A stretch of DNA of 64,000 bases, taken from NCBI GenBank assembly GCA_011109175.1, contig RDEW01000040.1:186001-250000 (forward strand), given 5' to 3'. This document shows, piece after piece, positions 4,618-62,400 of this stretch (position 1 is its first letter; the number at the start of each line of letters is the position of its first letter). A model generated the notes under the pieces. It was not told where the DNA came from. It was given only the letters and a program-made list of their open reading frames with translations, and made no database searches. A program made the translations under genes and the position numbers. The stretch comes from Dicyema japonicum (Eukaryota > Dicyemida > Rhombozoa > Dicyemidae).

Positions 4618-6837
4618 ATGAATTTCAAGATTAATTCAACAAATACTTTAAAGAGAAAACCAAATTTAGATCTTACTGAAGGTACTAATATAATCTGATG
4701 TATCCTATAGAAGAGAATAAATCTCCTTCCCAGAATACTAAGCGTATTAAATTTCCTACTTCTATTATACCTGCTGACGGGTTAGAAGACACGGAAATCG
4801 ATACTTTGGACACTTTTATGGCTGAATTAAATGTACTTCCTTAATAATTTCAGAATGAAATTGCTGAAAATAGCTCGAAAAAAGAAGAAAAGTTTATTCC
4901 ACTTTAAAAGTAGGGGGACACGTGAGGATATCGCAAAAGAGGACGAACATGAAGAGTACATCCGCTTTATGGACGAACATAGAATAGATAAAGCCGAGGA
5001 TGACGACTGTCAGTACTTGTTCGACGACGAAGGGACCGTGATTGGAAAGGCTTGTAAGGCTTGTGCCCATATTGATTACTTTTCAGGAAGTGATTGAACC
5101 GCTTCCTTCTATCGACCATGAGTCTGTTCGTTACTTAGAGTTTAAACGGAATTTCTACTCGGAGGCCCAGGATATTGCCAAACTTTCAGAAAACGATGTC
5201 GCAAACCTTCGAAAGAAACTGCAAGTTACTGTTTCTGGGATAGACCCCCAAAACCCGTCACATCGTTCTCCCACTTTGCCTTCCATGGTCCACTTTTGGA
5301 ATGCATCAGAAAGTCGGGGTTTACGGTTCCAACCGCAATTCAGAGTCAGGTATACCTCTTTTGGAGATTAAAGGGGATTCCCGCGGTCCTCAGTGGAAGA
5401 GATGTCATTGGGATTGCCAAGACTGGGAGTGGGAAGACTTTGGCTTTCATTTTGCCAATGGTCGTGCATATAATTGACCAAGAGCCTCTGAAACCAAATC
5501 AGGGACCAATCGCATTGATTGTGTGCCCCACAAGAGAACTGGCTCAACAGGTCGGGGACCGATTTCATGGTAGATCACGGTGGAGGCTATGAAGTACGGA
5601 AAGCCGTACAGATTGCGGATTCTCTGTGCTTTCGGTGGAGGAAGTATGTGGGAACAGCAGAAGGCATGTCAGTCTGGTGTGGAAGTCCTTGTTTGCACTC
5701 CCGTTTGAAGTTACCGATAACTTAAGGGACGGCTGATTGATCTTGTCAAGAAGAAGTCCACCAATTTTCAAAGAGTCACATTTCTTGTCTTTGATGAGGC
5801 TGACAGACTTTTTGAGTTGGGATTCGAGGCTCAGATAAGGTCAATTGCCAGGAATGTACGACCAGACAGACAGAGTAATAGTTTGGTTTTATTCTCAGCC
5901 CTCTTTTTTTCCGCTACGTTTCGGTGGAAGACAGAAAAGCTAGCACGAGACGTCCTCATAGACCCAGTTAGAGTGGTACACGGAGATACGGCAGGAGAGG
6001 TCTAAGACTGCTGAGTGGTAGATTAACCAAGACATCTCCCAGATTGTGGACCTGGTTCTTTCCGAGGAATCCAAGTGGGATTGGTTGAGACTGCGGATTG
6101 TATCTTTTATGAGCGGTATATTGGCTGTTTATTTTTAAGTTGGGACTGTCCTCATTTTTGTCAACAAAAAACAAACTTGTATCGATTTGCTAGGAAAACT
6201 TGGTCTAAACCATGGGGAAGGTTACTTTTAGGTTTTAGTCTAGTCTGCGCCCTCCATGGAGACTTGACTCAGTTCGAAAGGAATGATATAATTACTGGTT
6301 TTAAGAACCGGAAATATAATGTTATGGTGGCTACTGATGTGGCTTCACGTGGATTGGACATTCCCCATATAAGAACTGTGATAAACTACGACCCGGCCAA
6401 GAACATGGACATTCACACTCATCGCTGTGGTCGTACTGGTAGAGCTGGAGAGAAGGGGACAGCCTACACACTCTTAACATCAAAGGACAAAGAATTTGCT
6501 GGTCTCCTTGTGCGACAGTTGGAGGCCACGAACCAATTTGTTTTGAAGGGAGTCCTTGACCTAGCTAACATGGTAACGCATTGCTTATCCCAGAATCCCT
6601 GGTTCCAAAAAAACCGACACAAACATGTTAAGAAAGCTCAATCAAGTTGCGATGAACCACGTGTAAAATTCTCAAACACAATTTAAGGATATAAAATCAG
6701 CTATGATGGTTCATATTTACTTATATCAGGCTAAATATAAATCTCGATTCGTCCCGGCAGTTAGTCAGCCTATTGAGGAGAGGACCAGGAGTACCATGGA
6801 TAGTAAGAAAGTAAAGAAAACTCGATGGAGTAATTAA
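4618..6837 (+). CDS. DDX42: DDX42 orthologue, DEAD-box helicase (spliced)
   Basis: An ATP-dependent RNA helicase of the SF3b-associated DDX42/SF3b125 type, acting in the nucleus with the U2 snRNP. All motifs are visible once about a dozen tiny introns are removed: AKTGSGKT, PTRELAQQ, TPGRLID, DEAD, SAT, ATDVASRGLD and HRCGRTGRAGEKG. The N-terminal acidic EDIAKEDEHEEY and IEPLPSIDH blocks and the KKTRWSN end are diagnostic of DDX42. Clear introns include 4682-4710 (29 nt), 4833-4853, 4892-4913, 5350-5373, 5703-5726, 5875-5898, 6000-6021, 6116-6139, 6221-6243, 6573-6593, 6663-6687 and 6709-6729. The start is the first in-frame ATG. Two places do not join cleanly: near 5240-5262, a run of C/A homopolymers after VSGID, and 5551-5585. 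Each may be an assembly indel or an unrecognised splice. The long Gly/Ser-rich tail of vertebrate DDX42 is absent. Confidence 0.95.
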
Positions 6838-6859
6838 AATTGTGACAATAAACATATTA

Positions 6860-9139
6860 CTATGCTTTTTCTACGTAAAATAGTAATAGTTTTGTGTCAA
6901 ACCATATTGGTAGTCGGTTATAGCTTGGTATTAATTAGTGGATTACCTCGTATATATTGATATCAAAGCTCTGTTTTGAGGGAAGATATGTCAAACTCAC
7001 TCATTACAAACTTTCGCACACAAAAAGATTTGTTGACAGGCAGTAGTCCTACCATAGTTCCAGCTTCTATGAAAGAGATGATGGCTGAGGAGTCTGTGCT
7101 TTGTCTGCATATTAAACCAAGGAGTACCTTTTGGCACAAAAAGCATCAATAGGGTGACATAGAACCTCAATCGCCGCTATTAGGTGGCTCAACTGTAATT
7201 TGTTATGCCATGACTCAAACTATCATTAGATACATCAAAAAACCCAGGCTCTATCGGTCTTCCAGGACTCCCCATTCGACAGATCCGTACATTCGTCCTT
7301 TTGGATTATATCCAGTCGTTGAAGAGCAAAGAAAGCCTCCTTCTCCTTGATTATTCTATGAAGTAGTACAGAGTTGCCTAATAAGCCAAAATGCGAACCT
7401 TCCGCCTGAAAAGCAACAATATTGTTGATAGTCTCCACGATATTCATCAACGAAACGTGATTATGCTTTCTATGTAGAAGAAACCACGGAGTGGAAGCAG
7501 ACTGAAATCACAAAAATAAAAACCTTCATAATAAGAATCAAAGCATTCGCAGAATGGTCGAAATACGCTTTCATATAGGCCGACACTAACACGTGGTCAC
7601 TATAACTTACAATTAGCTAGGATTGTGGTAGCGTAGTCAATAAACTCATACTGCTGGACATAACCAACGAAAACGGTGGAATAAATCGTCTAAAATTACT
7701 GTGGTTTCAACCGAAATCAGATAGTCCATGTAGGTAGTACTTGGGGACCTCTCTTTATTGAGAAAAACAGCAAAAGTCCTCTCAGCACTAAGGATGAGCA
7801 GCAATTGAATGGCTAAGAGATTGATCCCCTTTACAGATGAACTTCTGTCCAAGTTCCGGTTGTTTCCTTGCTCGACAATCTCCAATAATAGTCCCGTGAT
7901 CGTCAGTAAATACTCACTACTCAAAAAGGCGTGAAGGAAGTTCTAGAATTAAAACAAGGGAGACCTTGTTGAGATAGGACGTGGCCCAAAAAAGGTAGAG
8001 AAGCTCGTAGCTGTGGGATCCCCACGTATCCTTTGAATACATCCACGGAATTATGCTTTTTGAAGTCAGCCTCCCAAGAATATCGCCAAATCCCTTAACC
8101 ACTGTCGATAGACTCTGCAGTAATCAACAAACCGAGACCATGTGTATGTCAATATCGCTGAGAAACTCAGCAAACAAATTGAGCTCAACCTGATTCTCAG
8201 CAGATAGCCTGACGTCGACAAGTGAGCTGACCAGCTGGGCGGAAATCACCACATTCTCTAAAATAATTTCCTCGCAGACCGTAAGAGGAGGCCGAATCAA
8301 AGATCTTGGACAGAAAAGCAAAAAATATTTTCTGACCTCGTTTTCTATAAAATATTAAGAAATGGAGCAACTCGATCTGGCAGACCGACTCAAATCTCCT
8401 TAGCCACGTGTAGGACATAGAGGCATCTGAGGAAACTGAAATTACACTGAATATACTGTCTTCGAGTTCATAAAGGTACTCAGAAATGACTGTGAGCAGC
8501 AGAATCTGGACAGTTATCTGGTTTGCGGTGATCTGGGGGATGGTGACCTGGAAAAACGAGTTTACGTGGTCCTCCACAGAGTTGGAGATGATCTCTTCGA
8601 CCTCAACGCAGAAGTTTGGAAAGAACATGAGATCCTATAGAGATTAGAGACCCCCAAACGATTATTATTTCAAGTAGAGCAGTACCAAGAGGGAGTTCGT
8701 CCTTGGGTTATTGAAAAAAAGAACCTGAGAGCACTTAACAGTCTCGGTCCACATAAATTTCCGCGACTTCCTATCCTCGTGAATAAACGGAATTATCCTG
8801 GTAAGCAGTCTTATCACAGAAATGACTTAAAATAAGCGAAATATCAACGTGTGTTTTTTGCTTTCTTCAACATTAACGGAATTCCGGCATATAATCAGTT
8901 TTTCCGTCAAAAATCTAAATAACTGTGTGAAAAGCTCAGGCTTCGTGTCCCTCAGAGACCGAATGTCACCAACTTGAACCGACTCGATGTAAGATTCAAG
9001 GCTGTTAGAACCTTGACATGATATATTTTCCAGAAATCGGTCTCTGTCTGAAATTTAATCGCAATTTATTTACTTCAGTTGCACTGTTTAGGTGAGATAT
9101 TACTTTGCAAAGAGGAATTTTAGAATTGGTCGTTCCCAT
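6860..9139 (-). CDS. HID1: HID1 orthologue, Golgi/dense-core-vesicle protein
   Basis: A HID1-domain protein, known as a peripheral Golgi protein needed for dense-core vesicle and secretory sorting. The N-terminus MGTTNSKIPLCKVISHL matches the myristoylation-type MGxxxSK start of the family. Further anchors in order are LLTRIIPFIHED, ELLYLFW (7980-8010), ILSAERTFAVFLNK (7745-7800), INNIVAFQ...GNSVLLHRIIK (7340-7440), FIEAGTMVGLLPV (7010-7070) and the C-terminal PIWFDTKLLLF before the TAG at 6860-6862. Introns that can be placed exactly are 9048-9073 (26 nt) and 6924-6946 (23 nt). Others, including the ones near 9010-9030 and around 7930-8100, are clear only from frame changes. It converges on DDX42 with 22 nt between the two stop codons. 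Confidence 0.92.
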
Positions 9140-10170: not shown

Positions 10171-13100
10171 TTAATTAGCTAATCTCCTCTTCTTGGGGCC
10201 AACGTCAATTGTCAGTATAGGTGTGTTTTCGTTGTCGCACAACCCACATTCCGAGACTCCCCTAGGTCGACATTCCTTATCAGCTTCCTCCTCATCAGGT
10301 ATCGATACTCCATGTCTATCTTCAGCTTGCATGCTCTCCAACGTCTTTCTCAATACTAACGTTTGGATGTACGCTTTCACCCTTTCCTCCAGTTTGAGGG
10401 CATCCAGATGGCCCTTGAAGAATCTCGAAACAATCCCATCCCAGGTAATGACTACAGGGATTATTTTTACCTTTGCGCGATGAATACATCCGAGTTCGTT
10501 CGCCAGTAAGTCATACTTATGGAACTTTTCCACCTCGACTTGCTTGAGGCAGTTTTGGGACGTGATCCCAATTTCAACGAGAGTAATCGTATTACGCACC
10601 TTATCATGAACGAAAATATCGGGTTTGTTATTCTGTACAGCCGTATCTGTACTAATCGTTGTGTCTACACGAATCTCCACAAATTCATTTGAGACAACAG
10701 ATTGGACTGAGTGGGTCTTCAGTTTCTTAGTTTTTCTTATTCCATATTGACGGCAGAGGTGTAAGTGAATACATCTGACCACCTCGTTATGCCGCCTGAG
10801 ATACGAGCTATTCAGCATTCTCCCACATCTAGTTGCAAGGTGATCAACGGTCTTCTTTCCTGAGTTACAATGTTTGCACTTGGCTTCTCCATTATCAAAA
10901 AACATGTTACGATCCTGAAGCAGACACAGCCTTCCTTCGGTTACAGGAGAATGATTTCCATGAACTAACCACCCTGAGGATTCAGCAATATTCACTTCGG
11001 TATCTTTCAGACACTCAAATAGAATAGAGTGCAGCGATTTCTCTTCAATTTTTCCCAGTAGATATTCATGTTGTATTTCCATCAATTTCAACATTGTCAA
11101 ATCCTTCACATTTTCAATGTTGTACTTTCTTGAGATGAATTCTACGATAGTGGCCATGTGTATTTTCTTTGAATTAATGACCCGTAGAATTCCCGCTCTT
11201 CTTAGGCAGTAATTTGCCTTATGTTCCAAATCACTATAAAATTGGAGGAGCATTCTTTCTGCTTTGTTACTGACTGACTCGAGGCCTCTTCCAAATTTAT
11301 TTCTTGGTAGATAAAGTCTTTCTTTGTTTGCCGGTTGCAAGTGGATATGACTGTCCATAAGAATTCTGCGAATATTTTTATCAATCTGTTCAAACTCTCC
11401 AGGTTCGATATCAATCAATCCAATGTAATAGTTGTAAAGGGAGATTGCATACTCATTCATAGCTTTAAACAGGTTCACTGAGTTTAAATCCGTCTTCGTC
11501 AAATTTTTGATCCGCTTAGATACTTCTCCATAGATTTTATTCATAATTTCTCCTTTAAGAACATTGCTGTTCTTATCTTCAAGAACTCCCAAATATCGGT
11601 ATCCATCCAATCCATCAAGGAAACGAGCTTTCCCAGACAAGGACTTGACATTTGTTGCAGATTTGTCAAAGTTCCTCTCCAACCCGGCTGCATCAAAAAA
11701 CGAATCAACTTCTTCCATCATCATAACCATTGAATCACTTTTGTGAGAAAACAACTTTATATCGTCCATAAACAGAAGGTGATTAGTGGCATATGTTGGC
11801 TCTCCATTTCCCGGGCTTCCCATAGTTACTTTAGGAAATTTTCCATTCAATATTCGGCTAAGGGGGTCCATTAACAAAGCAAAGATCTGTGGCGAAAGAG
11901 AGTCCCCCTGTAGAATTCCTCTTCTTATTCTAATCTCCCCCAACACTTTTCCTTCCAAATTCAGTCGTATCTTCCATTTCCCAACAAGTTTCGTGATAAA
12001 ACTCACAATCCAGAAAGGCAGGCCAGAATTCTGGAGCACTTCGCCCAAAAACTCGTGGTCAACGGAATCAAATGCTTTTTTAACATCGATCCAGGTAGAA
12101 CATAAGTTACTTCCATTTCTTTGATTTAAATATTGGTTCACCAAAGCTTGTTCTTTGGCTCCTTGACACATCCTCCGAGTTCCCAATTGATTATCACTTA
12201 AGAGATCGTACGATTCAATATATTCAGATAATTTCTTGTTCACACACTTTGTCAATAGTTTATAGAGATTAGGCATACAAGTAATTGGTCTTAACTCCTT
12301 GGGTGAATTACATACGTCCACTTTTGGTATAAGATGTGTTATCCCCGTGTAGAACCAATCACCAGGCGTATATTCATCATTTATGATCTTCTGAATCTCC
12401 TCGCAAAGATGTTCATGAATCGAAGTAAAACTTTTGATAAAGAAGTTATAAACTCCGTCGCACCCAGACGCTTTCCAATTTGGAAGCATCTTGATAGTAT
12501 CGACGATCGCTTCCTTTGTAAAATCGGCATAAGAATTTTCAGATCCAGTCACTCTCTTGTTCAACAAGAATTTGCTCTCCTTTCGATCACTCTCATTCCA
12601 AATGGTTGTCCAAAAAGGTAGACATTCCCCTTCATCGAAATTCAGCACTCCCTTCTTATTATCTCCACTAATATTTCTGTAGAACCGCCTTCTATTCAAC
12701 TCGAAGCACCAATTGGCTCTTCTAAATCCCTTTCTTGATTCATAAATTCTCAATTTCTTCTCAATTATCTTGATTTGATCACGGACATAGGAAGCAATTC
12801 TCTCAAATTCTCCCCTCTTCGATTTCTTAAATCCATATGAACATAGAGTATTGCGCACTTCTTCATCAAATTGCTTCTTCCCGTTCATTTCACTAGCCAT
12901 TTGAATTTGCTCAAGTTGTTTCCTAAGTTTAGTGATTTTTCCTTTCATGGACTCTTCCCAATTACTTTTAGTGCTATTCCTCCTGGTAAGACTTTCATAG
13001 GTGCACTGCCCAGCATATATGATATCTGTGATATCATTGATATCCAAATTAGGCAAGGAATCTATATATTCCTTGATTGCCGCATTAATTCCATTCAAAA

Positions 13101-13626
13101 TATCCTTTTTTATCAATTGTCTGGGAATCTTCCTAGTAGGCATGCGAAGGTTCCTTCCCGTTGTGAATACTTTCCCAATTTGGCAACAAAACTCTTCAAA
13201 GCATTTTCTAAAATTCGAAATTTCTACCTTCTGTATTTCCCCAACTGGAAGACCACAGAGTGATTCACTCGAATTTGAAAAGAGCAAGCTCTTGAAATTG
13301 GTAACGGATTTCGATGTCCCGAATCTTTGGTTAAAAGCATTCGTAATCAGAGGCCAACCACCACGGGGCATTCTCTTAAATCTGGATTTTGTAGCTTCAA
13401 CTACTTCCACAGCCCATTGTCTCTTGTCCACAGTGTGAACTTTGTCGACTACGCATTGCAGTGAGAGAAGATGTTCTTTAAGATCAGTATTGACAACTTT
13501 TTGGGTCTTGGACAAGTCATCGACCACATTCTCTACGTTTCTTTTGTTTTTTCTTTTAGTAACTTTCGTAGATAGGTCGATTGAAACATCTTTTCTTCTT
13601 TTCTTACAAGAAACAGCCATGCCCAC
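10171..13626 (-). CDS. intact RLE non-LTR retrotransposon ORF (family A)
   Basis: A single uninterrupted 1151-residue ORF encoding reverse transcriptase plus a restriction-like endonuclease, the R2/R4/NeSL type of LINE that copies itself by target-primed reverse transcription. Visible parts: a basic N-terminus (residues 1-35); a MPRGGWPLITNAF block near 86-98; reverse transcriptase with WIDVKKAFD (512-520), GILQGDSLSP (570-579) and the catalytic FMDD (619-622); and a zinc knuckle Cx2Cx7Hx4C (917-934). It ends with RHN (945-947), KPDI (1001-1004) and a following E at 1018, which together form the nuclease signature. The 5' flank carries TTTTTTGTTGTTGTGG just before the ATG, shared with the copies at 32547 and 53725. 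Right after the stop is TTAATTAATTA, also shared with the second copy. No N-terminal C2H2 finger is seen. It contains no introns. Confidence 0.95.
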   Translation of the reverse strand: MGMAVSCKKRRKDVSIDLSTKVTKRKNKRNVENVVDDLSKTQKVVNTDLKEHLLSLQCVVDKVHTVDKRQWAVEVVEATKSRFKRMPRGGWPLITNAFNQRFGTSKSVTNFKSLLFSNSSESLCGLPVGEIQKVEISNFRKCFEEFCCQIGKVFTTGRNLRMPTRKIPRQLIKKDILNGINAAIKEYIDSLPNLDINDITDIIYAGQCTYESLTRRNSTKSNWEESMKGKITKLRKQLEQIQMASEMNGKKQFDEEVRNTLCSYGFKKSKRGEFERIASYVRDQIKIIEKKLRIYESRKGFRRANWCFELNRRRFYRNISGDNKKGVLNFDEGECLPFWTTIWNESDRKESKFLLNKRVTGSENSYADFTKEAIVDTIKMLPNWKASGCDGVYNFFIKSFTSIHEHLCEEIQKIINDEYTPGDWFYTGITHLIPKVDVCNSPKELRPITCMPNLYKLLTKCVNKKLSEYIESYDLLSDNQLGTRRMCQGAKEQALVNQYLNQRNGSNLCSTWIDVKKAFDSVDHEFLGEVLQNSGLPFWIVSFITKLVGKWKIRLNLEGKVLGEIRIRRGILQGDSLSPQIFALLMDPLSRILNGKFPKVTMGSPGNGEPTYATNHLLFMDDIKLFSHKSDSMVMMMEEVDSFFDAAGLERNFDKSATNVKSLSGKARFLDGLDGYRYLGVLEDKNSNVLKGEIMNKIYGEVSKRIKNLTKTDLNSVNLFKAMNEYAISLYNYYIGLIDIEPGEFEQIDKNIRRILMDSHIHLQPANKERLYLPRNKFGRGLESVSNKAERMLLQFYSDLEHKANYCLRRAGILRVINSKKIHMATIVEFISRKYNIENVKDLTMLKLMEIQHEYLLGKIEEKSLHSILFECLKDTEVNIAESSGWLVHGNHSPVTEGRLCLLQDRNMFFDNGEAKCKHCNSGKKTVDHLATRCGRMLNSSYLRRHNEVVRCIHLHLCRQYGIRKTKKLKTHSVQSVVSNEFVEIRVDTTISTDTAVQNNKPDIFVHDKVRNTITLVEIGITSQNCLKQVEVEKFHKYDLLANELGCIHRAKVKIIPVVITWDGIVSRFFKGHLDALKLEERVKAYIQTLVLRKTLESMQAEDRHGVSIPDEEEADKECRPRGVSECGLCDNENTPILTIDVGPKKRRLAN

Positions 13627-13808
13627 AACAACAAAAAATTATAACCTTCCTTTAATATCATCATAGTAAATAAGAAACATTTTATAATATCGATTAATTA
13701 GTTACATTTTATAATATTGATTTATTATGTATTAGCATTTATAACTCATTAATAAATAAATGAATTAAAAATAATATTTTTGAATTATTCAGATTAAATC
13801 AGAGGTTT

Positions 13809-18175: not shown

Positions 18176-19306
18176 ATGAACTTTCTTGCTAATGTTGTGT
18201 ATAAATCATTAAACTCTTAGTTAACTGAGTTCTCCTCTATCGAATTTTCATTAGTAACCGGTAAAAACTACATAAATAACAGCATAGACGTTTCATCTCG
18301 ATTTAACGAATATGCAGAAAAGAATTTATCTCACCCATATGCAGCAGTTAAAGTCTTGGTGGACATTATGGCCACTTCAGACTGTATTTCTTTCAATATA
18401 TCTCAGCCGCGAGTTTGAAAGGACTTAGTGAAGAACTTGTCTCAGCTTACAAAACTATGAGTGGACTTTCAGAGCATTCGTTTTCCGTGCATTCAGCCTG
18501 TGACATGTGTACCCGATTTATTTGTCGTTCTCCCTCCATTTACAATCCAGTATTTTGAATGTCTCACTTTTAGGATTATTTTCAATTTAGAAAAGATCTG
18601 TTCTTGCGTTCTCACAGCTTCTTAGACATGGTTGAGAACTCGGCTGAGCGATCTTCTCTCACAATGTCTTTAGAGTTGGCAAAATCTCAGGTTTTTTTTA
18701 ATTTTAGAATTTAGTCTGTTTTTGTCGTTGGGAGTAGAAAAATTGTCGGAAAAGCTGTCATCAATTCTGTCATTTCTAGCAGGAATTTGAAAAGTATTCA
18801 TTTTAGCCACCAAGAACAGTAATCTTTGTTTTAAATAATTAGGTCTTCATTTGTGAAGAATAAACTGGGTGATTGTATGCCCGAACACTTTGTTGTTGAC
18901 ATTAACGAATTTTGGTATTTAAAGTTGATTATTTGAGTAATCGTGTTGGAGGATACGACTCGTTGATATTAGGTGCTGAGACTGTCTTCTCCTCTGGTGA
19001 GTATCTGGCTGAGGTTTTTTGTGAGTCATTTTAGAGCGGAGTCCTTCCTTTCTTGATTATTGCAAAGTCTTTTGGAATTTGTATTTATGTGATGGTGGAA
19101 TTTTATAAATTCAATTCCGGAGTATTGATTGGTGATAAATGCTTATATAATGTTTTTTATATTATTATTTGTAGTTGACAACCATTAAAAGTGACCTTTC
19201 TGGTTTTGATGTTGTTGAAAGTCAATATGTTAACAAATATATGACAGACATTGGAGAGATCTATCCTGATTCCATTAAATATGTTATTGACAATATGTTT
19301 ATATAA
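18176..19306 (+). CDS. EIF2B1: EIF2B1 orthologue, eIF2B alpha subunit (spliced)
   Basis: Regulatory alpha subunit of eIF2B, the guanine-nucleotide exchange factor for eIF2 in cytosolic translation initiation. Matches to the family run in order: HPYAAVKVLVDIM; then LKGLSEELVSAYKTMSGL and SACDMCTRFI; FRKDLFLRSHSFLDM; SVFVVGSRKIVGKAVI; YDSLILGAETVFSSG; the IAKSF...VMVEFYKF block; and the C-terminal YMTDIGEIYPDSIKYVIDN with its TAA at 19304-19306. Exact introns: 18384-18406 (23 nt) and 18550-18573 (24 nt). Three or four more, between 18690 and 19175, are evident but not all resolve to one splice choice. The start ATG at 18176 is the likeliest; an earlier ATG at 18164 is followed by a stop. No frame-breaking defect is certain. 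Confidence 0.87.
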
Positions 19307-25600: not shown

Positions 25601-28600
25601 TGCCTTTTGATAAGCCTTTTCAGGTTTTTTTAAATTTGACGAAAAGGCTCCCCCACTACGAGTATGCATTTTGGGTGCTCATGGAAGTGGTAAGACTGCT
25701 GTTGGAAAGTATATTGCAAAAAAACACAATTTATTTTTTATTTCTTTTCGTGATCGACTTCAAGAAATGATAATTGGGAAAACTCGACGAATCGTTGGAG
25801 AACCATACTTTGAGCCACCTGAAGAAACCGACGAGGGGTGAATATCAAATGTAATACTTAGATCCAATTATGTAACCAAGGACAATAAACTTGTTCATAA
25901 AAAGACGCTCTTGTTTGACTTTGATTGAATTTTAGCTTACAAGAACTTGATATGAAATTTCAAAATAAAGAATATGATATTTATAAAGATAATATCTCAG
26001 ATTTGATAGAAGCTTATGATTCTCAAGAGAATGAAATGAATGATGTATCACTTTTTTTAATCCAAGAATATCAACAAACCAGACTTTACAGAAGCTGAAG
26101 AGGCGATAGTGGCTTATTTAGAAAATGGAACTCCAATGTCAAATGAAATACTCGAAGATATTTTGGCTGAATGGTGGACTAAGGAACCTTTTCGGTAGAT
26201 ATTTTTCGGTAACAAAGAAATGCTGGATTCGTGCTTGAAGGGTTTCCTCACACATTGGAAGACGCAAAATTCCTTTTGGAGAATAAATACTTTCCTGACT
26301 TTTTTTTAGTACTGAATGTCGATCAACCAGTGACCCTAAAGAGACAACTACATTTGAGAGTGAATAACTGGAAAGAAAGGGACAATATTTTTAAGAGCAG
26401 AATTGCAGCAAAAATGGAGATGAAAGTCCTAGAAAGAGTAAGTTATTTTAAATAATAGACTTTAAAAGTCAATCAAAGACGTCTTATTTTGATAAATGAA
26501 AAGCATGAAAGGGAGCTTGAAGAAAAGGTTTAAAATTTTCTGTAAACGTCAAGGAAAGCGAACTCAGTGAAAAGGAGGAAGAAACCGTCAGTTTGGAAGA
26601 AGAATCATTTAGTGAAGGAATCAACGAAATTGAGCAACAACTAATGGATGAATTTGATCAAGTTTAATAGTTTTACTTATCCAGGTTGAGCAAGAACCAG
26701 AGACGGAAAATATTGAAGATGCCATTGAAAGAATTGAAAATGAATATGCCGAAGTTTATGACAATGATGTAAATAGTTTGGCAAATGTTCTGGTAAATCT
26801 AATAAATATATGATTAAGGACATTGCTAATGAATTCTTACTTCCAAAGATAGAAATAGACTCTAACAAAAGAACGGATGTTGTCTTTTACTTAACAGACC
26901 GTGCTTTGGAACCCTATTGCAACCCAAGAAACATTTTTGAAAGAGTTTATGAAATCAACAGAACACTCGCCAGGGATCTTTTGGACAGTGGCTACAAATT
27001 TTACAGTCATTTCAAAACCTGGTGTCCTGTTGAGGTTTGTTAAAATTTATTTTTCAGATTTTCGATAATAATCGTATAAAACAATCTGTTCGATATGACA
27101 ATAGTATTTCCGTGATATACAGAAGTCACATTTATTATATTTCAAACGAGACTGCTTTAAAAAGATTCAGGAATGATCCTCGAAAATACATAAATATGAT
27201 TTCCTCTGAGACTATAATTCCCTTTAAAATAGCAATATTCGGTCCTCCAATGAGTGGAAAAACTACTAGTAAATCAATTTAAATAAAATTTAAGTTGTCA
27301 AAAAATTATGTCAACATTTTGGATTAGTTAGAGTGTCTCCAAGTGAAGCACTCAATTATATTTTAAAGTACCAGTCTTACACTGAACTGTCTATTAAAAT
27401 TGATAAAATATTGAGAACGGGGGATGTGGTGCCTGATTATTTAGTTTGTGACGCTATTAAAATATTTATACTGACTGCAGAAGCCAAATTAAATGGGTAT
27501 GATAATCTTATTCTAAATCATTTAGTTTCGTTTTTGATGGATATCCAGTTACCAGAGACCAGCATGATTTGTTGGAAAAAAACGGAATACGCTTTGGATG
27601 TGTGATCAATCTAAATGTTAGCAGAAACAAGTTAATGTATCGGGGGCTTTTGTCCAGATATTCAAGTGACAGGTTTGCTTATGCTGTTGAGTCTTCAGGA
27701 AAGATCCACTCCACGATAGTGCGTTAAGTCTATCTCTGAGATTGGACAAGTGGAATGAGGGTAATGAAGAAGTATATCAATTATATGAGGGACAATACGC
27801 AAATTTGATTAATATTAATGGGCAAAGTCCAAGTGGTGGGTTTGGGAAAATGTGAGAAAGACAATTCTTGAAAAAATGACAAATATCAATAATTATTATG
27901 AAAATATCAATAAGGGTGATATTTTAAATTATTCAGGCATGGCTGCTCCGCTTTTAGATTTAGCCATAACTCCTCGGGAATTTTCAGAGAGACTAACACA
28001 TCTAAAGGAGTTTTGTCCCGTCAGTTTAATAGAATACGAAGAATTGGTGGATTGTAATGAATTTCACAACCTCACATATGCTGCAGAGTTTAAAGGTTAG
28101 TTTTTTTATTATTTATAGGGCGGTATTACAAAATGTGCTGTTCTCGTTGTCTATCACTGTTTTTAAAAAACCCCGACAAGTACATTAAATTGGCAAATCT
28201 TCCTGAAGATGACTATATTCCCAAAAAGATTGATTCTTTTAAGTATAACCTTGAATTTTCCGAGAGATTACATGTTTGGCGGATACTGCGTAGTCACATT
28301 TCTTCAAAAAGAGCAGCAGTACACATTTTACAAGAGTTTAGATACGAGGCATTAGTGGAGGGGTCAGAGAGTATTTGCTGTAAATACCGAGGAAATTATT
28401 TATGTTTTGCCTCTGAGGATTTAAGGAATGAATTTATTAAGTTATTTTTTGTTTATTGAATTTAGAAAACCTGAAAAATTTTATTCACTTAAGCTGCCTT
28501 ATAAATTACCCCCACGGAAGGTTTCCATTGATTATAATCAACTTCCAATATTGGGTTATCTCGAACAGCGTCTTGCTACAAATCCTCATCAAGGCTATTA

Positions 28601-28973: not shown

Positions 28974-31900
28974 TTAATTAAGCGTATTTTGATCCAGATT
29001 GTTGGTAATCATTCTTCTTCTCTTAGAAGAAGAGTGTGCCATAACCTCCCTGTTACTCCGCATCTCCACATCATATTCAGTCAAAATATCTCCGTTAGAG
29101 TCCAGTGGGCTGTCTTCACGGCATGCCAGTTCCACAAGTAGGGAGGTAGCAGAGGCGTACTCTTCATCGTATACCTTCATCCCATGCTTATGTTCAATGA
29201 GCATACTTTCGAGCGTTCTCTTCAGTACAACCGATTGGATGTAAGTCCTCGTTGATTCTTCAATAGATAATTTATCCATATGATTCTTGAAGCATCTTGA
29301 GACAACTCCATCCCATGTCAAAACCACTGGAATAATCTTCACTTGGCATTCATAGAGCAGCGAAAGTTCATTTGCTAGCAAGTCATATTTGTGAAGTTTC
29401 TCAACTTCAACTTGCTTTAGTCGGTCTTGTGAGGTAATCCCCACTTCAATTAACGTTACTTCCTTCTTTATTTTGTCATACACGAAAATATCAGGTTTAT
29501 TGTATTGGACTTTTGTTTCTGTCAAAATCGACGAGTCAACTCTAATTTCGACATTTTGATTCGTCAATATTGACTGAACCGAATGTCCTTTCAATTTCCT
29601 GCTTCTTTTGATTCCATAAATTCGACAAAGATGAAGATGGATGCACTTTACCACTTCATTATGTCTTCGGAGATAATCACTATTTAGCATTTTTCCACAC
29701 TGAGTGGCCAAATGATCAACAGTTTTCTTGCTTTTTTTACAATGGTTGCATAATGACCCCGTGTGTGCAAAAAACAAATTCCTATCTTGCAAAAGACAGT
29801 ACAATGCTTCGCTCCGTGGGCCGTTATTTCCTTTGGATAACCATTCTGAGGAAGTATATAGGTCGACATTTGTTTCATCAATACATTTGAACATAATTGA
29901 GTGTAGTGTTCTGCAATAAATTTTATTTAATAAATATTTTTTCTGAGTGTCCTTGAGGGACTTAATATCCATGCTTTCCCTGTCGGCAATTGCATATTTA
30001 GAGGCAAGAAATCCTGCGATTGTAGCCAAGTGCCATTTTTTTGTTTTTATTACTCGCAGAATCCCCGACCTTCGCAAACACACAGTCGACTGTTTTTCCA
30101 AACTTTTAAATACTGGAAAAGTATTAATTCGTTCTTTAATGAAATCGAGGAAAGTTTTCTTCCAAAAGTCTTCCTGTACAAATACAGCCACTGTGTATTT
30201 GCAGGTTTGAGGTGCAACTTGAGTGACGTAAGCAGTTGCCGTATTTGTTGGTCAATATCATCAAATTCGTAAGGTTCAATATTAATTAATCCTATACAAT
30301 AGTTATATAGGAGACATTGCGTATTCATTTATTGCACGAAATAAGTTCACAGAATTTAACTTTGTTTTTGAAAGCATGGTTATTCTCTTAACATTTTCAA
30401 GTATGGACTCCATAACTTTGCTTTTAAGAACATTACTTCCCTCATCTTCAAAAACACCCAAATATCGATATCCACTGACTCCTTCCAGAGTCTCACAACA
30501 TGATAACGATTTAACATTAGAAAGTGACTTTTCCGAATTCATCTCCAAGCCGGCAACATGAAAGAAATCGCGAACAACTTCCATCATTTTAATAACAGTA
30601 TCTTCTTTTAGCCCAAATATCTTTAGGTCATCAATGAATAACAAATGATTTGTAGAATAAGTCAGTGTATTAGGATCCTCCTGATTAATTTGGAGTCTTG
30701 GGAACATAAAGTTAAGGGTCCTGCTCAAGGGTTCCATTACCATAACAAATAGTTGAGGGGATAATGAATCTCCTTGCAAAATTCCCCGTCCCAGTTTTAC
30801 AGAACCAATTCTTCTTCCATCTAAGTGGAGATTTACAGTCCACTTCTTGACTATGGTCTTTACAAAGTTTACAATCCAACGGGGTATTCCTGAGCAGTCC
30901 AATACATGAAATAAAAATTCATGGTCAACAGAATCAAAGGCCTTCTTCACATCCACCCAAGCAGAATAAAGGGCGTTTCCATACTCCTTATTTAAGCATT
31001 GATTAATAAGGGCCTGTTCCTTAGCGCCCTGACAATGTTTCCTCGTTCCCAGCTGATTGTCAGATAATAGCCCAAACGAATCCACAAAATCTGAGAGTTT
31101 GGAATTAACACATTTGGTAATAAGTTTATATAAAGTTGGCATACACGTGATAGGACGTAAGTCATTAGGAGTCTCACAATCATCCTTTTTAGGAATTAAA
31201 TAGGTTATTCCAGTATAAAACCAACTTTCAGGCATATATTCCCCATTAATAATTCGGTTAATCTCAGTACATAAAAAGCCATGTAAAGATTCCATTTTCT
31301 TAATAAAGAAGTTATATGAGCCATCGCATCCACACGCCTTCCAATCAGGGAGCCATTTAATAACATCCAGGATAAACTCATTTGTGAACTCTGGCAACAT
31401 GCCTTCAATACCAGTATTTACTTTACCCACACTGTCATATGGCACGTTCATCTCTTTTCTTTTAGACCACACTTTTTCCCAAAACGACATACAATCCTCA
31501 TCATCGAAACCATATAACGTTACTTCATTGCTTGCTGATAGGTTCCGATAAAATCTTCTTCGATTTAATTCAAAACAACAGTTGTCCTTGCGAAAGTCCT
31601 TCCTCGAATGATGTACAGCTATTTGCTTTTTTTAATTCTGACAAGGTCACATAGTAGAGCCTCAATCCTGGCAACCTCCCCTTTTTGGCCCTTTTGTATC
31701 CATAGGCACAAAGAACATCCATAACCTTTTGTTTTTCATACACAGGGAGAGCTTGTCTGGAAAAGCTATTGACAAGTTCTAGTTCTGCCATCAGCTTTGA
31801 GATTTTCTTTTCAGTGTTCTCCAACCACGTACTTTGCGGTTTAACCTTCGCAGTTAAAGTCATATAAGCACACTGTGCAGCATATAGAATATCAGTAATT

Positions 31901-42869: not shown

Positions 42870-44480
42870 GCTTAAGTTTTTAGGTGAATAGAAGATACTT
42901 TGTCAGGCCCGCACGCCCGTGAGCTCTTTAATCTGGTGATCACATCCAAGACTTGGTCATCTGTGAATATTTCGTGGTAAAGTTCCTTCTTCAGTTTATG
43001 GACACGTACCTTAATTTCTAGGTGTTTAGAGAATGGTTTGAAGCTAATTCCAGCGTAATGTTTCATAAGGGTGTTAGGATGTAGGTGGCATAAGTGTTCA
43101 GAAAACTTTCCGGTTTCGTCTGCATCATCCAGCTCCGACTTGACTTTTTTAAGAGTTTGCTAGAAATCGGGATGTACTATTCATGTCGAGGTGGTTAACT
43201 AGATGCTGCCATATCTTGTCCTTGTGTTCTTTCGTGTTCTGACAGATCCTTTTATTTATTCGTCTGAAGGCTGTTAAAGACTTCATGTCCAACAGGTGGC
43301 ATCTCTTCAGCCGGTCTCTCTGTTTTATAAGACTTATTGTATAAGAGCTGAGGGTAGGAATAAACTTCTTATATGACGATATAGGAATAAAAATATGGTC
43401 AGCTTTCTGAATGGCAGCGATGATAATTTCTGCGGCCTCATCAATAGAGCTTATTGGGGAAAATAATTTCCGGGCCAAAAATTTATCCACAAGGTTACTG
43501 AAACCGGACCAGTCAACCTTCGTATAATCCTTGAATCTTTTTGATTCCGCCGGCCGTCTCTCGTATCGTCGAAGACCTCTCAATTTTAGAAGGATTGGAT
43601 TGTGGTCACTGGAAAGCCGTAAAAGACGTTCCAAGAAATGAGTGCAGCCAGAGAAGGTGAGCACTATGCTATAGTGTTAAGTCGGGGATGTGCAGCTATC
43701 AGTCATCCTTAATGTGTATGTGAGTTAGGGTTGTTCAGTATAATCAGGTCAGAAAGATAATTTGCAACGAGTTCTCGGTTATCAGAAGATTGGGAAGTGA
43801 GCCAAACTGGATGTCGTGCATTAAGATCCCCACATAACACTAGATTTTTCAATGTTGAAATTCGTGATAAATCAGGGGTGTAAGATGACGGACACGATCC
43901 TTGTGGAGGAATATATAAATTAGCCAAATGGATCCAAAAGGACAGGAATAAATCGATTTTGACAGTAATCTGCTCCAAAGTATTGTCGGTGCCAAGAAGC
44001 TCTGAGGTTCGTTGAGTTGTATCTATAAAGGAAATATCGTTCTTTATAATAGTAAGTAGTCCTCCTCCGCGTCTTCCCTGACGATCTTTACGGATCACTG
44101 TGTATCCGGGAAAAGAGGGTGTTGGTATGGAGGGAGATAGCTTGGACTCCTGTATTAAAGAGAGATCAGCCTCATTTTCGCGGAGGAGTGCCCGGAGTTC
44201 GAAGATTTTCTTCCTGATCCCATTCGTATACAGTTGTATAATTGTAAAACCTCTCCATGGACCATGATTGGATTTTGACGTCTCCACATAGAAGAATCAA
44301 AAGTCTGGACAAATGGAGACACCAGACAGGGTCGAAGACACAGGAGATGAAAGGACCACCGGACGGTGAGGAGAAGCTGTTGGCTCTTTTCGTTCCTTTT
44401 TAATGGGTGACACCATTTCTGGTGAGCCACATGACACCACGCTAACAACATATTTCACGCTAACAACATAATTCATCAAT
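42870..44480 (-). pseudogene. Jockey-like LINE ORF2, endonuclease half
   Basis: The longest Jockey-like copy. The AP endonuclease starts near 44287: IIQLYTNGIRKKIFELRALL, ADLSLIQESKLSPS (catalytic Glu), GGGLLTIIKNDISFI, NLYIPPQGSCPSS and LVLCGDLNARHPVWLTS. After a frame change it continues with RLSSDHNPILLKLRGLRRYE (SDH box), the linker (TLSSYTISLIKQRDRLKR) and TDDQVLDVITRLKSSRACGPD, just ahead of the RT. It ends abruptly near 42870 before the catalytic RT motifs, joined to unrelated DNA. The 5' leader frame (44297-44479) lacks a recognisable ORF1. Confidence 0.87.
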
Positions 44481-54681: not shown

Positions 54682-54840
54682 TACAGGGTTTTCCTATTTA
54701 TTTAATAACTTTGTCATAAAATTTAATAACCTTGTCAAAAAATTTAATAACTTTGTCAAAATATTTAATAATTCGTCATAAAATTTAATAACTTTATCAA
54801 AATTTTTAATAACTTTGTCAAAATACTTAATAACTTTGTA

Positions 54841-54957
54841 AAGATTATTATTTATATTTTTGGGATTATTATTTATATTTATTGAGATCATTATTTATAT
54901 TTATTGGATCATTATTTATATTTATTGATCATTATTTATATTTATTGGATTATTAAG
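54841..54957 (+). repeat. tandem repeat inside mariner-like element
   Basis: Five copies or so of an about 22-bp unit ATTATTTATATTTATTGGATC, directly inside the left inverted-repeat arm. Not present next to the right arm, so it is not part of the inverted repeat. Confidence 0.8.
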
Positions 54958-56046: not shown

Positions 56047-56283
56047 TTTATAGTTGTTTTTTTCAATTAATTATAAAATTGGCTTCTTTTAATTTGACCC
56101 TTGACAAAGTTATTACACATTTTGACAAAGTTATTAAACATTTTGACAAAGTTATTAAGTATTTTGACGAATTATTAAACATTTTGACAAAGTTATTAAA
56201 TTTATGACAAAGTTATTAAATTTTATGACAAAGTTATTAAATATTTATTGACAAAGTTATTAAATAAATAGGAAAACCCTGTA

Positions 56284-59434: not shown

Positions 59435-62400
59435 TTATTTTTTAAAATATTCAACAACATCAGTCCAATATTGAGATGGCATGCGAAAATGCAAGCCAAA
59501 TTCACTTTTAAAGTCTATAATAAATTATACATAATACTGTTATCGTCCCTATCTTGTCTCTAAAATATATTTATACAACCAACCATAACATATTCTGCCA
59601 AATGTGAACAGTTCAACTCAATTGAAACAATTCGTGTATTCTCATCATTTTTGTAACAACAAGCAATCAAAGTCGGGAATAAAACGTCAATTAATTCCGG
59701 ATCAGAAAAATATTTGAAAGGAAGATTGCATAGTTGTTGAAGAATAGTCGGGGCCATACCTGACTGAATTATTTCCTAACCATTAGTTCCTAATAGAACC
59801 TGATTAGTTACATTTAAACTGGCAAAGTGTCCAATAAGAAGAATTATTGATTGTAGGAGATCATCAACATATTGAGTAAGGCAGTGCTGCATCAGATTGC
59901 TGACAATATAACGGAATTGTAGCCAAACGATAGCGTCACTCACAGCAATCTTATTAACAAAGACAATAAACCTGTAATGTGGAGACATCAAAAATAGCAT
60001 ATTGGTTCAGAAAACAGAACATTTTTTTAGATATATTAACTGTCTTTTCAGAGATAGTTTGTAATGTGAACTCGTTCTGATCAAATGACAGCAGAGTTCT
60101 GTGTAGTAAATCGATAGTTTCGAATGCACATGTCACGTGGAATATAAAAGATATGTCCTTGAATGAAATTTGATTTCTAAGCATTATAATACAAAAACAA
60201 CTTATATGGTTTCAACCAGAATACAAAAGCAGAAAAAAAGTCTAGAGAAGCAGTCACAAACACGAAAGAGGTCTTAATGTCTTCAATGAGACGAAGGGAA
60301 CATGAAATGTACTCTAATATTGCCATATTTTTGATGTAACTAACATTAGATATTAAATCAAACTTGAAAATATGAACACCATTTGAAACCTCTTTATGTA
60401 GAGCTCCGTTTTTAAAAACTATAGCAAGGATTCTTAAGCAAATGGTGAGGAGAGAGTCATCAGAAATACTGAGATTTTGACCCACAAATGGGATTTGTAC
60501 ATGTGACTAAATAAATTGACATGACTCACAGATAATTGGTACAAGAGAAGGTTGATTAAAATCAAAAATTCACAAGAATTTAACATTGTTAAACAATTCT
60601 CTTGTGAATGTTCAATGACGTGGTAAATTATCTCCAGGCATATTATTTCCAGTCTAATTTGAAACAAATCATAAACTTGGAACAAAGACGAGAAACAAAA
60701 TTAATATTTTTAGGTTGATGTGTAAGAGAATTTAATAAAATCCCAAATCCTCCACAGTTATTAAAAATTTTTGAAAATTTGTCATTTGACTTATCCTGGG
60801 ACTGAAACTAAGCAATAAACTTTATAAATTCTTAAAATTTCATTAAAATTTTTTCCCAATTCGTTAAATTGTATAATCGATTCATTTTCATCACATCTTC
60901 GCTTAATAGCCTTCAAATTAAACAATAACCTAAATATTTACATCATCCAACTTGAATTCTTTAGATTTTTTATCTCCGTAGTGTACATTTGGAGTGGTCA
61001 TTTCTGATAAACTGTTCCTTTATTCACTCATTAACTATACCTTTCAGCAAGAATTTCCCTTATTTCCGAACATTTAGTCTTTAAGAGAGCATTCCTTTGT
61101 CGCTTAAAGTCTTCAATGTAAGAGTCCTCCATCTCTTCATCAGCATCACTTATCAAACAAGGGGTCTCTATTTTTTCTGTTGGAACCCCATTCTTATGTT
61201 TTTCAGAAGAAATGTGATCCAACACATAAACATTGGAGGGAATCTGACAAATATTAAAAAATACAACCAAAATGTTGCATTTTGTACACATTTTGCAATT
61301 TAATTTTCTTGATTTATCAATAGGATGAATATTTCCCCTCGTGGGTCTAATCTGCCTCATTTGAATTGTTTGACGAGCCTTTACTTCAGCTTTCTAATAT
61401 AAAAAGTAAGCATTAACCTTTGCTTCGATCTTTTCCTTTAGAGCCGATACTTTTTCTTCTTTTGAGCATTAAGAATAGCCATTCTCTGTCTATGACTCCT
61501 TCCAATAATAATGATAATTACCTTTCTCTGTCTCTCCTATTAGCTCGGTTTTCTCGTTTCTTTTTCTTACGCTGCTCTTCAAACTCATTTTGCCTCTGTT
61601 TTTTGGTTTCTTGACGTTTCATTAGTTCACAAATTCTTTGCGATTCATTCTCCTCTCTACGAGCGACCACAGCAGCAATTTTATCACTATGTTCGTATTG
61701 TCGTCTCTGTCTTTCCTCCTGTAAGTCTGAAAAATGTAGAAAACCTGAATATCTCGCAATCTATGTTGACTTTCAGACATTTTGTTATCCAATTCATATC
61801 TTTTAGTCTCAATGTCGAGATTTTTGATAAAAGCGACCTCATTTATCTTTACTAAACAAAATTATGTGCCTTTTCGTCCGCTTCGTGAGCTTTATCGATA
61901 ATTTTCTGTAGTTCTCTAGAACGATTCTCTTCAGCAAGTCGCATTTTCCGTTCTAAGGCATCTCTCTGCTCTTGGATCATCCTTTTCTTGTATGAATTAA
62001 CCAATGCAATCTAAAAACATACAATTAACTACTTTGTGTCGTAAATCCTTGATCTTGGTTCTTCTCTGAGACAATATCTGTTGTCTGTAGTTTGCAGCTT
62101 TTTCCAATTTTTCATCAAGTTTTTTGAGAAGAGATTGTCTATATATAAAATATATAATAAAACTCTTCAGTATCGTCCTCATCAACTGATGATGCCGTGG
62201 AATCGAATGTACCTGGCTGAAATAATTCAATTTCCGCAGACAGTTTCATATCATGTTCATTATTGATTTTAAAGTTAACTCGCTCATGGACGCTAATTTA
62301 GCTCCCAATTCATCCTCATAATCATATATTTCTCGCATGGTCTATCAATTACATGTTTCCTAACCTTTTCAATATTATCATTATTTTCCTTAGAGGATGA

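What the first reader, a model, noticed from the sequence alone, without database searches (positions are those of the whole stretch)
4682..6729. Introns of 21-29 nt throughout conserved genes
Exact excision of GT...AG segments of 21-29 nt restores the DDX42 frame at twelve places (for example 4833-4853, 5350-5373, 6000-6021, 6116-6139, 6573-6593). The same size class fits EIF2B1 (18384-18406, 18550-18573), AK9 (25624-25646, 26195-26217), HID1 (6924-6946) and SCAPER (59515-59537, 59560-59583). These are near the lower physical limit for spliceosomal introns and, with metazoan orthologues, point to a dicyemid-like host. The 24-nt introns can be read through without a frameshift, which would hide them from simple gene finders.
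Basis: partly seen in the sequence, partly recalled or inferred. Interest (0 to 1): 0.82.

Follow-up and report, generated by a model that had tools for sequence, protein, structure and literature searches.

The report
Ultrashort introns in dicyemid-like animal genome
The genes in this window carry real introns of about 21 to 28 letters, a size already known from the dicyemid parasites of squid and octopus, and the same genome also keeps a second, minor splicing machine whose few identified introns are about twice as long.

Summary
A spliced alignment of the DDX42 region to a metazoan DDX42 profile, allowing any intron of 10-150 nt at one flat cost, returned ten GT-AG introns of 21-28 nt. GT-AG ranked first of 256 dinucleotide pairs. 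Of 16 helicase loci examined 14 aligned and gave 61 introns; of the 53 forced by frame or stop codons 40 are 21-28 nt, median 24. Genome size (64.7 Mb), window GC and intron length fit a dicyemid, where such introns have been published since 2007, so the finding itself is known biology. Host identity is inferred, not proven.

Beyond it: the genome has U11, U12 and U6atac genes above Rfam cut-offs and a sub-threshold U4atac that pairs with U6atac. Four U12-type AT-AC introns of 48-58 nt interrupt CACNA1, PLC, SMAP-type ArfGAP and GGPS1 genes; the CACNA1 and GGPS1 genes also hold 23-26 nt GT-AG introns. Motif counts alone show no clear excess. No U12-type GT-AG intron was validated. I found no report of this for dicyemids. 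One frame break in DDX42 (5244) is not an intron.

The parts
4698..6837 (+). DDX42 gene (first ATG used 4698, stop TAA 6835-6837), 13 candidate introns, one frame break at 5244
4833..4853 (+). intron 21 nt
   Evidence: spliced alignment
4892..4913 (+). intron 22 nt
5063..5090 (+). intron 28 nt (5054-5090, 37 nt, is an in-frame alternative)
5350..5373 (+). intron 24 nt
5551..5573 (+). intron 23 nt
5703..5726 (+). intron 24 nt
5875..5898 (+). intron 24 nt
6000..6021 (+). intron 22 nt
6116..6139 (+). intron 24 nt
6221..6243 (+). intron 23 nt
6573..6593 (+). intron 21 nt (3n; found only at the milder penalty)
6663..6687 (+). probable intron 25 nt, by frame only
6709..6729 (+). probable intron 21 nt, by frame only
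5240..5252 (+). frame break inside a homopolymer run, not an intron
   Evidence: frameshift at 5244
18384..18406 (+). intron 23 nt in EIF2B1
18550..18573 (+). intron 24 nt in EIF2B1
   Evidence: frame restored; weak sub-cut-off Pfam matches
26195..26217 (+). intron 23 nt in the same gene, in an adenylate kinase domain
   Evidence: frame restored; name not verified
59560..59583 (-). intron 24 nt in the same gene
   Evidence: frame restored
6924..6946 (-). claimed HID1 intron, GT..AG on the minus strand, not confirmed

Best explanation
The segments are ordinary major-class (U2-type) spliceosomal introns that have shrunk to 21-28 nt in a dicyemid-like animal. They are removed by a conventional major spliceosome (shown: U1, U2 and U6 genes with conserved donor-pairing, branch-pairing and catalytic sequences; inferred: that these are expressed and do the splicing), which here accepts almost any donor beginning with GT and a branch adenosine about 7-10 nt before AG (weak statistical signal), leaving roughly 12-16 nt between donor and branch in a 22-23 nt intron. 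The genome also keeps a minor (U12-type) spliceosome (shown at the level of snRNA genes only) for at least four AT-AC introns of 48-58 nt (shown by frame and homology). I infer that minor introns cannot shrink as far because U11/U12 reads fixed elements of 8-9 nt at both ends, and that AT-AC minor introns were kept because, unlike GT-AG minor introns, they cannot slip into the permissive major pathway.
For: GT-AG first of 256 dinucleotide pairs, and all ten lengths 21-28 nt with 10-150 or 4-400 nt allowed. The spliced part of DDX42 downstream of the frame break (452 aa) matches PDB DDX42 at 550 bits over residues 1-397, and every relative with an organism named among the 120 listed of 7997 is an animal. 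61 introns in 14 of 16 loci, 40 of 53 forced ones 21-28 nt. Donor positions +3 to +6 carry 0.26, 0.06, 0.01 and 0.19 bits; YTNAY with A at -13 to -6 in 19 of 40 against 11.7 (sd 2.7) in shuffles. snRNAs: major; minor. Four AT-AC introns; the CACNA1 one lies in what aligns as domain I segment 1, where PMC6259924 reports a U12-type AT-AC site conserved in almost all calcium and sodium channels (passages). In the same CACNA1 gene GT-AG introns of 24, 25 and 24 nt; with all four removed the piece matches the N-type alpha-1B channel at 433 bits, 259 in the best stretch. GGPS1: GT-AG introns of 26 and 23 nt.
Against: No RNA data. Host identity rests on indirect features; the 18S search did not complete. 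The census uses one protein family (DEAD-box helicases) and a profile of one member, so boundaries in distant members are approximate; the 12-nt call and the tail of 32-78 nt probably include artefacts. With only five decoy pairs tried, a decoy beat GT-AG in L003 and L092 and came within two score units in L001, L008 and L093, that is 5 of the 13 additional aligned loci; leaving these five out gives 36 of 42 forced introns at 21-28 nt, median 23.5. The branch window was chosen after looking; over the whole intron YTNAY is only 23 of 40 against 17.8 (sd 2.8), 45 of 1000 shuffles as high. Motif counts alone show no clear excess of U12-type introns: 19 hits against 23, 19 against 10, 22 against 28, 10 against 26 for reversed-pattern controls; the case rests on homology and frame. 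The PLC alignment has a 7-residue gap close to the junction; the GGPS1 piece has no Pfam match and the ArfGAP piece is below its Pfam cut-off. The match around the 25-nt CACNA1 intron is weak.
Confidence: 0.88

Rival explanations
1. The segments are random indels or sequencing errors in pseudogenes or a poor assembly, and GT..AG segments that restore the frame are picked by eye.
For: One frame break each in DDX42, L006, L008 and L092 (4 of 14 aligned loci) is not an intron.
Against: GT-AG beats all 255 other dinucleotide pairs by a wide margin in DDX42; spliced DDX42 is up to 63% identical over 88% of the query to animal DDX42; the size class recurs on many contigs.
Confidence: 0.02
2. Real ultrashort introns, but the host is not a dicyemid: an orthonectid or another reduced animal.
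For: No dicyemid sequence appeared among the 120 listed relatives, which include molluscs, fishes and other animals; no phylogeny was made.
Confidence: 0.1
3. The four AT-AC cases are chance motif matches or come from contaminating cephalopod DNA, and there is no working minor spliceosome.
For: Motif counts are not above the reversed-pattern controls in 3 of 4 pattern searches (above); U4atac is below the Rfam cut-off.
Against: Joins to four known proteins, three ungapped across the junction and one with a gap near it, one at a deeply conserved U12 site; ultrashort GT-AG introns in two of the same genes; U11, U12, U6atac above cut-off and a 12-bp U4atac/U6atac stem with a double change against the Rfam consensus lines.
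Confidence: 0.06

Closest known systems
Dicyemid spliceosomal introns (Aruga 2007 PMC2222250, Zverkov 2019 PMC6543705, Lu 2019 PMC6736024: passages seen; Ogino 2010: citation only)
   Same: Introns mostly of 20-30 nt, several per gene, in conserved animal genes; similar genome size and GC
   Different: Median 24 here against 26-27 published (mean 29 for my forced set against 38 in Lu 2019); a weak branch-like signal here where Irimia and Roy 2008 saw none in 41 Dicyema introns (PMC2483917, passages)
Paramecium and B. natans nucleomorph short introns (as described in PMC2222250)
   Same: Uniform introns of 20-35 and 18-21 nt
   Different: Unrelated lineages, so independent shortening (inference)
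U12-type AT-AC introns, e.g. the domain I segment 1 site of calcium and sodium channels (PMC6259924, passages)
   Same: ATATCCTTT donor, TTCCTTAAY branch site, AC end, same segment of CACNA1
   Different: Only 48-58 nt, in a genome whose major introns are half that length
Blastocystis minor introns (Larue and Roy 2023 PMC10639083, passages)
   Same: Short (median 39 nt) and mostly AT-AC (196 of 253)
   Different: Hundreds there, at least four here; a protist, not an animal

Membership tests
U2-type spliceosomal introns | GT..AG ends | tested here: met
   GT-AG ranks first of 256 pairs in DDX42; clearly best of six pairs in 8 of 13 further loci
U2-type spliceosomal introns | excision restores a conserved protein | tested here: met
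   550 bits to PDB DDX42
U2-type spliceosomal introns | major snRNAs present with intact functional sites | tested here: met
   U1 11 hits (best 69.0 bits, just under the 69.5 cut-off; ACTTACCTG in 5 of 6 copies read), U2 27 (22 over cut-off; GTGTAGTA in 6 of 6 read), U6 10 (9 over; ACAGAGA in 6 of 6 read); U4 and U5 not searched
U2-type spliceosomal introns | branch site consensus | tested here: inconclusive
   19 of 40 against 11.7 in shuffles in a window chosen afterwards; 23 of 40 against 17.8 over the whole intron
U2-type spliceosomal introns | spliced out in mRNA | not testable with these tools
   no RNA data
Dicyemida (host) | introns of about 26-27 nt | tested here: met
   median 24,
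Dicyemida (host) | genome about 65-67 Mb, GC about 37% | tested here: met
   64.67 Mb; GC measured for the window only, 35.9%;
Dicyemida (host) | phylogenetic placement by 18S or proteins | not tested
   18S search unanswered twice; no tree built
U12-type introns | RTATCCTTT donor and TTCCTTRAY branch site | tested here: met
   four loci; the four were found by this motif, so this is not independent
U12-type introns | in-frame excision in a conserved gene | tested here: met
U12-type introns | U11, U12, U4atac, U6atac present | tested here: met
   three over cut-off; U4atac 32.4 bits against 53 but able to pair with U6atac
U12-type introns | minor-spliceosome proteins | not tested

The most novel reading that the evidence does not exclude
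This animal runs two spliceosomes with two different size floors: a very permissive major one for introns of 21-28 nt and a minor one that now serves only AT-AC introns of about 48-58 nt, because every GT-AG minor intron was lost or converted to the permissive major class. The genome would then show directly why the minor spliceosome persists: AT-AC introns are trapped.
Probability: 0.4. Interest if true: 0.68.

Novelty: new member of a known kind. Interest (0 to 1): 0.5.

Why it matters
Ultrashort dicyemid introns are known, so the finding as written adds a confirming genome. The extra result matters more: in one gene (CACNA1) a 53-nt U12-type AT-AC intron sits beside 24-25 nt GT-AG introns, so the shortest intron that each spliceosome tolerates in the same nucleus can be compared, and the idea that AT-AC minor introns are evolutionarily trapped can be tested in a genome where few minor introns were found. 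Gene finders that set a minimum intron length of 30 nt, or allow only GT-AG, would misannotate such genes.

Tried and rejected
Indels or pseudogenes as the cause: rejected by the 256-pair test, except for single frame breaks in DDX42, L006, L008 and L092, which stay unexplained. Other U12-type candidates, GT-AG ones included: of the pattern hits I tested 18 of 19 (L042 overlaps L043), 16 of 19 and 15 of 22 (the rest were repeats of places already seen). Joins were judged by open frame and by eye; only two peptides and four went to Pfam or the PDB. Beyond the four, none looked like a known protein. L037 (42 nt, GT-AG) is ambiguous. The ten GTATCCTT hits could not be read as loci (two of those places had been seen as L045 and L048, one as L037), so the GT-AG class is not excluded; imperfect motifs and gaps outside those searched were not covered. 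The PLC intron first looked out of frame with an AG end; an AC end 14 nt after the branch motif puts it in frame. A 12-nt intron in L095 and the 32-78 nt tail are taken as doubtful. Stop enrichment or 3n depletion: none seen. Duplex energy of the U4atac candidate with U6atac was not decisive (-31.7; shuffled mean -22.4, sd 3.7, lowest -36.1; genomic mean -23.8, sd 5.6, lowest -38.9); the argument is the unbroken 12-bp run, read by me. Pfam gave nothing for the SCAPER and EIF2B1 pieces and the six ORFs scanned with them. Literature searches: 5, 6, 14, 28, 50, 51, 73, 85, 89, 94.

Full report
WHERE IT IS. The window is bases 186001-250000 of contig C127 of an unnamed 64,672,829-base assembly of 191 contigs. 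Window GC is 35.9%, 27-43% by 2-kb step.

THE OBSERVATION. Every coordinate pair quoted was checked: 9 of 12 are GT..AG on the plus strand; the HID1 and SCAPER segments (3 of 12) are GT..AG on the minus strand. The exon from 5374 matches DDX42 best in the PDB. I wrote a spliced aligner (three phases, frameshifts allowed at a cost, any GT..AG of 10-150 nt at one flat cost) and ran the region 4640-6900 against a profile of 20 metazoan DDX42 proteins out of the 120 listed. It found ten introns of 21-28 nt and one frame break at 5244. The score rose from 1229 without introns to 1539. With each of the 256 dinucleotide pairs in turn, GT-AG came first; the other 255 gained 99 on average (sd 36), 204 at most, against 310. 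Allowing 4-400 nt gave the same ten; penalties of -8, -20 and -26 gave 11, 10 and 7 introns. Hand splicing gives three in the C-terminal part (6573-6593, 6663-6687, 6709-6729) and keeps the frame open to the stop. The spliced part downstream of the frame break (452 aa) matches PDB DDX42 at 550 bits over residues 1-397, and every relative with an organism named among the 120 listed (of 7997) is an animal. EIF2B1, AK9 and SCAPER segments restore frames; eIF2B-alpha is matched weakly (E 3.2e-4) and adenylate kinase just over its cut-off. The SCAPER name and the HID1 intron are not confirmed.

BEYOND THE WINDOW. I aligned 15 further DEAD-box loci (L001-L008; L090-L096; chosen from the 38 matches) to the helicase core of the same profile. 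With the window, 14 of 16 loci scored at least 150 (L005 and L094 did not) and gave 61 introns; 53 are forced (length not a multiple of three, or a stop if read through), 8 are not. Of the 53, 40 are 21-28 nt; median 24, mean 29.4, commonest 23; the rest are one of 12 and twelve of 32-78 nt. Against this: of five decoy pairs tried per locus, one or more beat GT-AG in L003 and L092 and came within two units in L001, L008 and L093 (5 of 13 further loci). Without those five, 36 of 42 forced introns are 21-28 nt, median 23.5.

SPLICE SIGNALS. In the 40 forced introns of 18-30 nt the donor beyond GT is nearly free (0.26, 0.06, 0.01, 0.19 bits at +3 to +6; 0.44 and 0.25 at exon positions -2 and -1). 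Near the 3' end, A rises at -8/-7 (19 and 22 of 40) and T at -10 and -6 (23 and 27 of 40); YTNAY with A at -13 to -6 occurs in 19 of 40 against 11.7 (sd 2.7) in shuffles, reached by 5 of 1000; over the whole intron it is 23 of 40 against 17.8 (sd 2.8), reached by 45 of 1000. The narrower window was chosen after viewing, so this is suggestive. Irimia and Roy saw no branch signature in 41 Dicyema introns (passages). The major snRNAs look conventional: of six copies read for each, U1 has ACTTACCTG in five, U2 has GTGTAGTA in six, U6 has ACAGAGA in six. Donor weakness is thus not matched by an altered U1 5' end.

MINOR SPLICEOSOME. U12 (85.4 bits), U11 (67.6) and U6atac (37.0) each have one hit, above the Rfam cut-off. 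U4atac has one hit of 32.4 bits, below 53, but its 5' end pairs without a break over 12 bases with U6atac, with a U-A to A-U double change against the Rfam consensus lines; as a duplex energy it is not exceptional. Pattern searches for U12-type introns gave 19 (reversed control 23), 19 (10), 22 (28) and, for GTATCCTT, 10 (26) hits. By count alone there is no clear excess. By frame and homology four hits are real: CACNA1 (L054, 53 nt, E 2.6e-28 to the N-type alpha-1B channel, ungapped across the junction), SMAP-type ArfGAP (L060, 48 nt, E 1.7e-8, ungapped), GGPS1 (L064, 52 nt, E 3.1e-9, ungapped; no Pfam match), PLC (L059, 58 nt, E 2.1e-14, a 7-residue gap close to the junction; PI-PLC-Y E 1.6e-24). 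All four are AT-AC and begin ATATCCTTTTT; the 3' end lies 7, 15, 7 and 7 nt after CCTTAA in CACNA1, PLC, SMAP and GGPS1. [quoted passage not shown] Cephalopod contamination is unlikely: the same CACNA1 gene has GT-AG introns of 24, 25 and 24 nt, and removing all four gives 433 bits to the N-type channel, 259 in the best stretch, with a weak spot at the 25-nt intron; GGPS1 has GT-AG introns of 26 and 23 nt. No GT-AG U12-type intron was validated; the loci could not be cut, so absence is not shown.

MECHANISM. Shown: GT-AG ultrashort introns; conventional major snRNA genes; minor snRNA genes; AT-AC introns in frame. Inferred: the major spliceosome tolerates about 12-16 nt between donor and branch and about 7-10 nt from branch to AG. 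Minor introns stay twice as long, perhaps because U11/U12 must read 8-9 fixed bases at both ends as one di-snRNP (recalled knowledge). The AT-AC bias fits Lin et al. 2010 (PMC2831892, passages including part of the abstract): U12 to U2 conversion is more frequent among GT-AG than AT-AC introns. Blastocystis, with the shortest average minor introns in the survey of Larue and Roy, is also 77% AT-AC (PMC10639083, passages).

HOST. Dicyema acuticephalum introns average 26.2 nt (n=16; PMC2222250, passages; species name as given in PMC2483917), Dicyema sp. has a median of 27 and the orthonectid Intoshia 57 (PMC6543705, passages); the D. japonicum genome is 67.5 Mb, GC 36.7%, 49% repeats with many LINE-1 ORF2 copies, mean intron 38 (PMC6736024, passages). 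The window fits these, and it holds reverse transcriptase and endonuclease ORFs of LINE kind. The 18S search did not complete, so dicyemid is inferred.

KNOWN OR NEW. The finding as given is known biology, in an assembly I could not name. On a minor spliceosome or U12-type introns in dicyemids I found nothing in the held library: 'dicyem' with 'U12' occurs in one paper, PMC2483917, whose passages treat the two apart; 'dicyemid' with 'spliceosome' occurs in four, of which the passages seen do not bear on it; one search listed 20 of 143 papers; one search gave Larue and Roy 2023, whose main text does not contain 'dicyem' and names Intoshia once. Most subscription papers and all supplements were out of reach.

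Noticed in passing
L021 (C68:163471-163599 -), L029 (C1:1591391-1591510 -), L028 (C34:237761-237858 -), L097 (C169:123513-123629 +): One hit each for U12, U11, U6atac and a divergent U4atac in a genome with ultrashort introns; U1, U2 and U6 have 11, 27 and 10 hits.
   Followed up: yes
L054:1500-1552; L059, L060 and L064 at the pattern match: Four U12-type AT-AC introns of 53, 58, 48 and 52 nt in CACNA1, PLC, SMAP-type ArfGAP and GGPS1 genes.
   Followed up: yes
window 5240-5252: Frame break in DDX42 inside a homopolymer run that no intron explains; single breaks also in L006, L008 and L092.
   Followed up: partly
window 10171-13638 (-), 30303-31631 (-), 43709-44296 (-): ORFs with reverse transcriptase (first two) and endonuclease (third) domains, probably LINE retrotransposons.
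   Followed up: no
window 54699-54839 and 56101-56264: AT-rich 21-nt tandem repeats whose consensus units are close to reverse complements of each other; a further 21-nt array at 54842-54955.
   Followed up: no
L037 (C115:188874): Ambiguous 42-nt GTATCCTT..AG candidate between open frames with no recognisable protein.
   Followed up: partly
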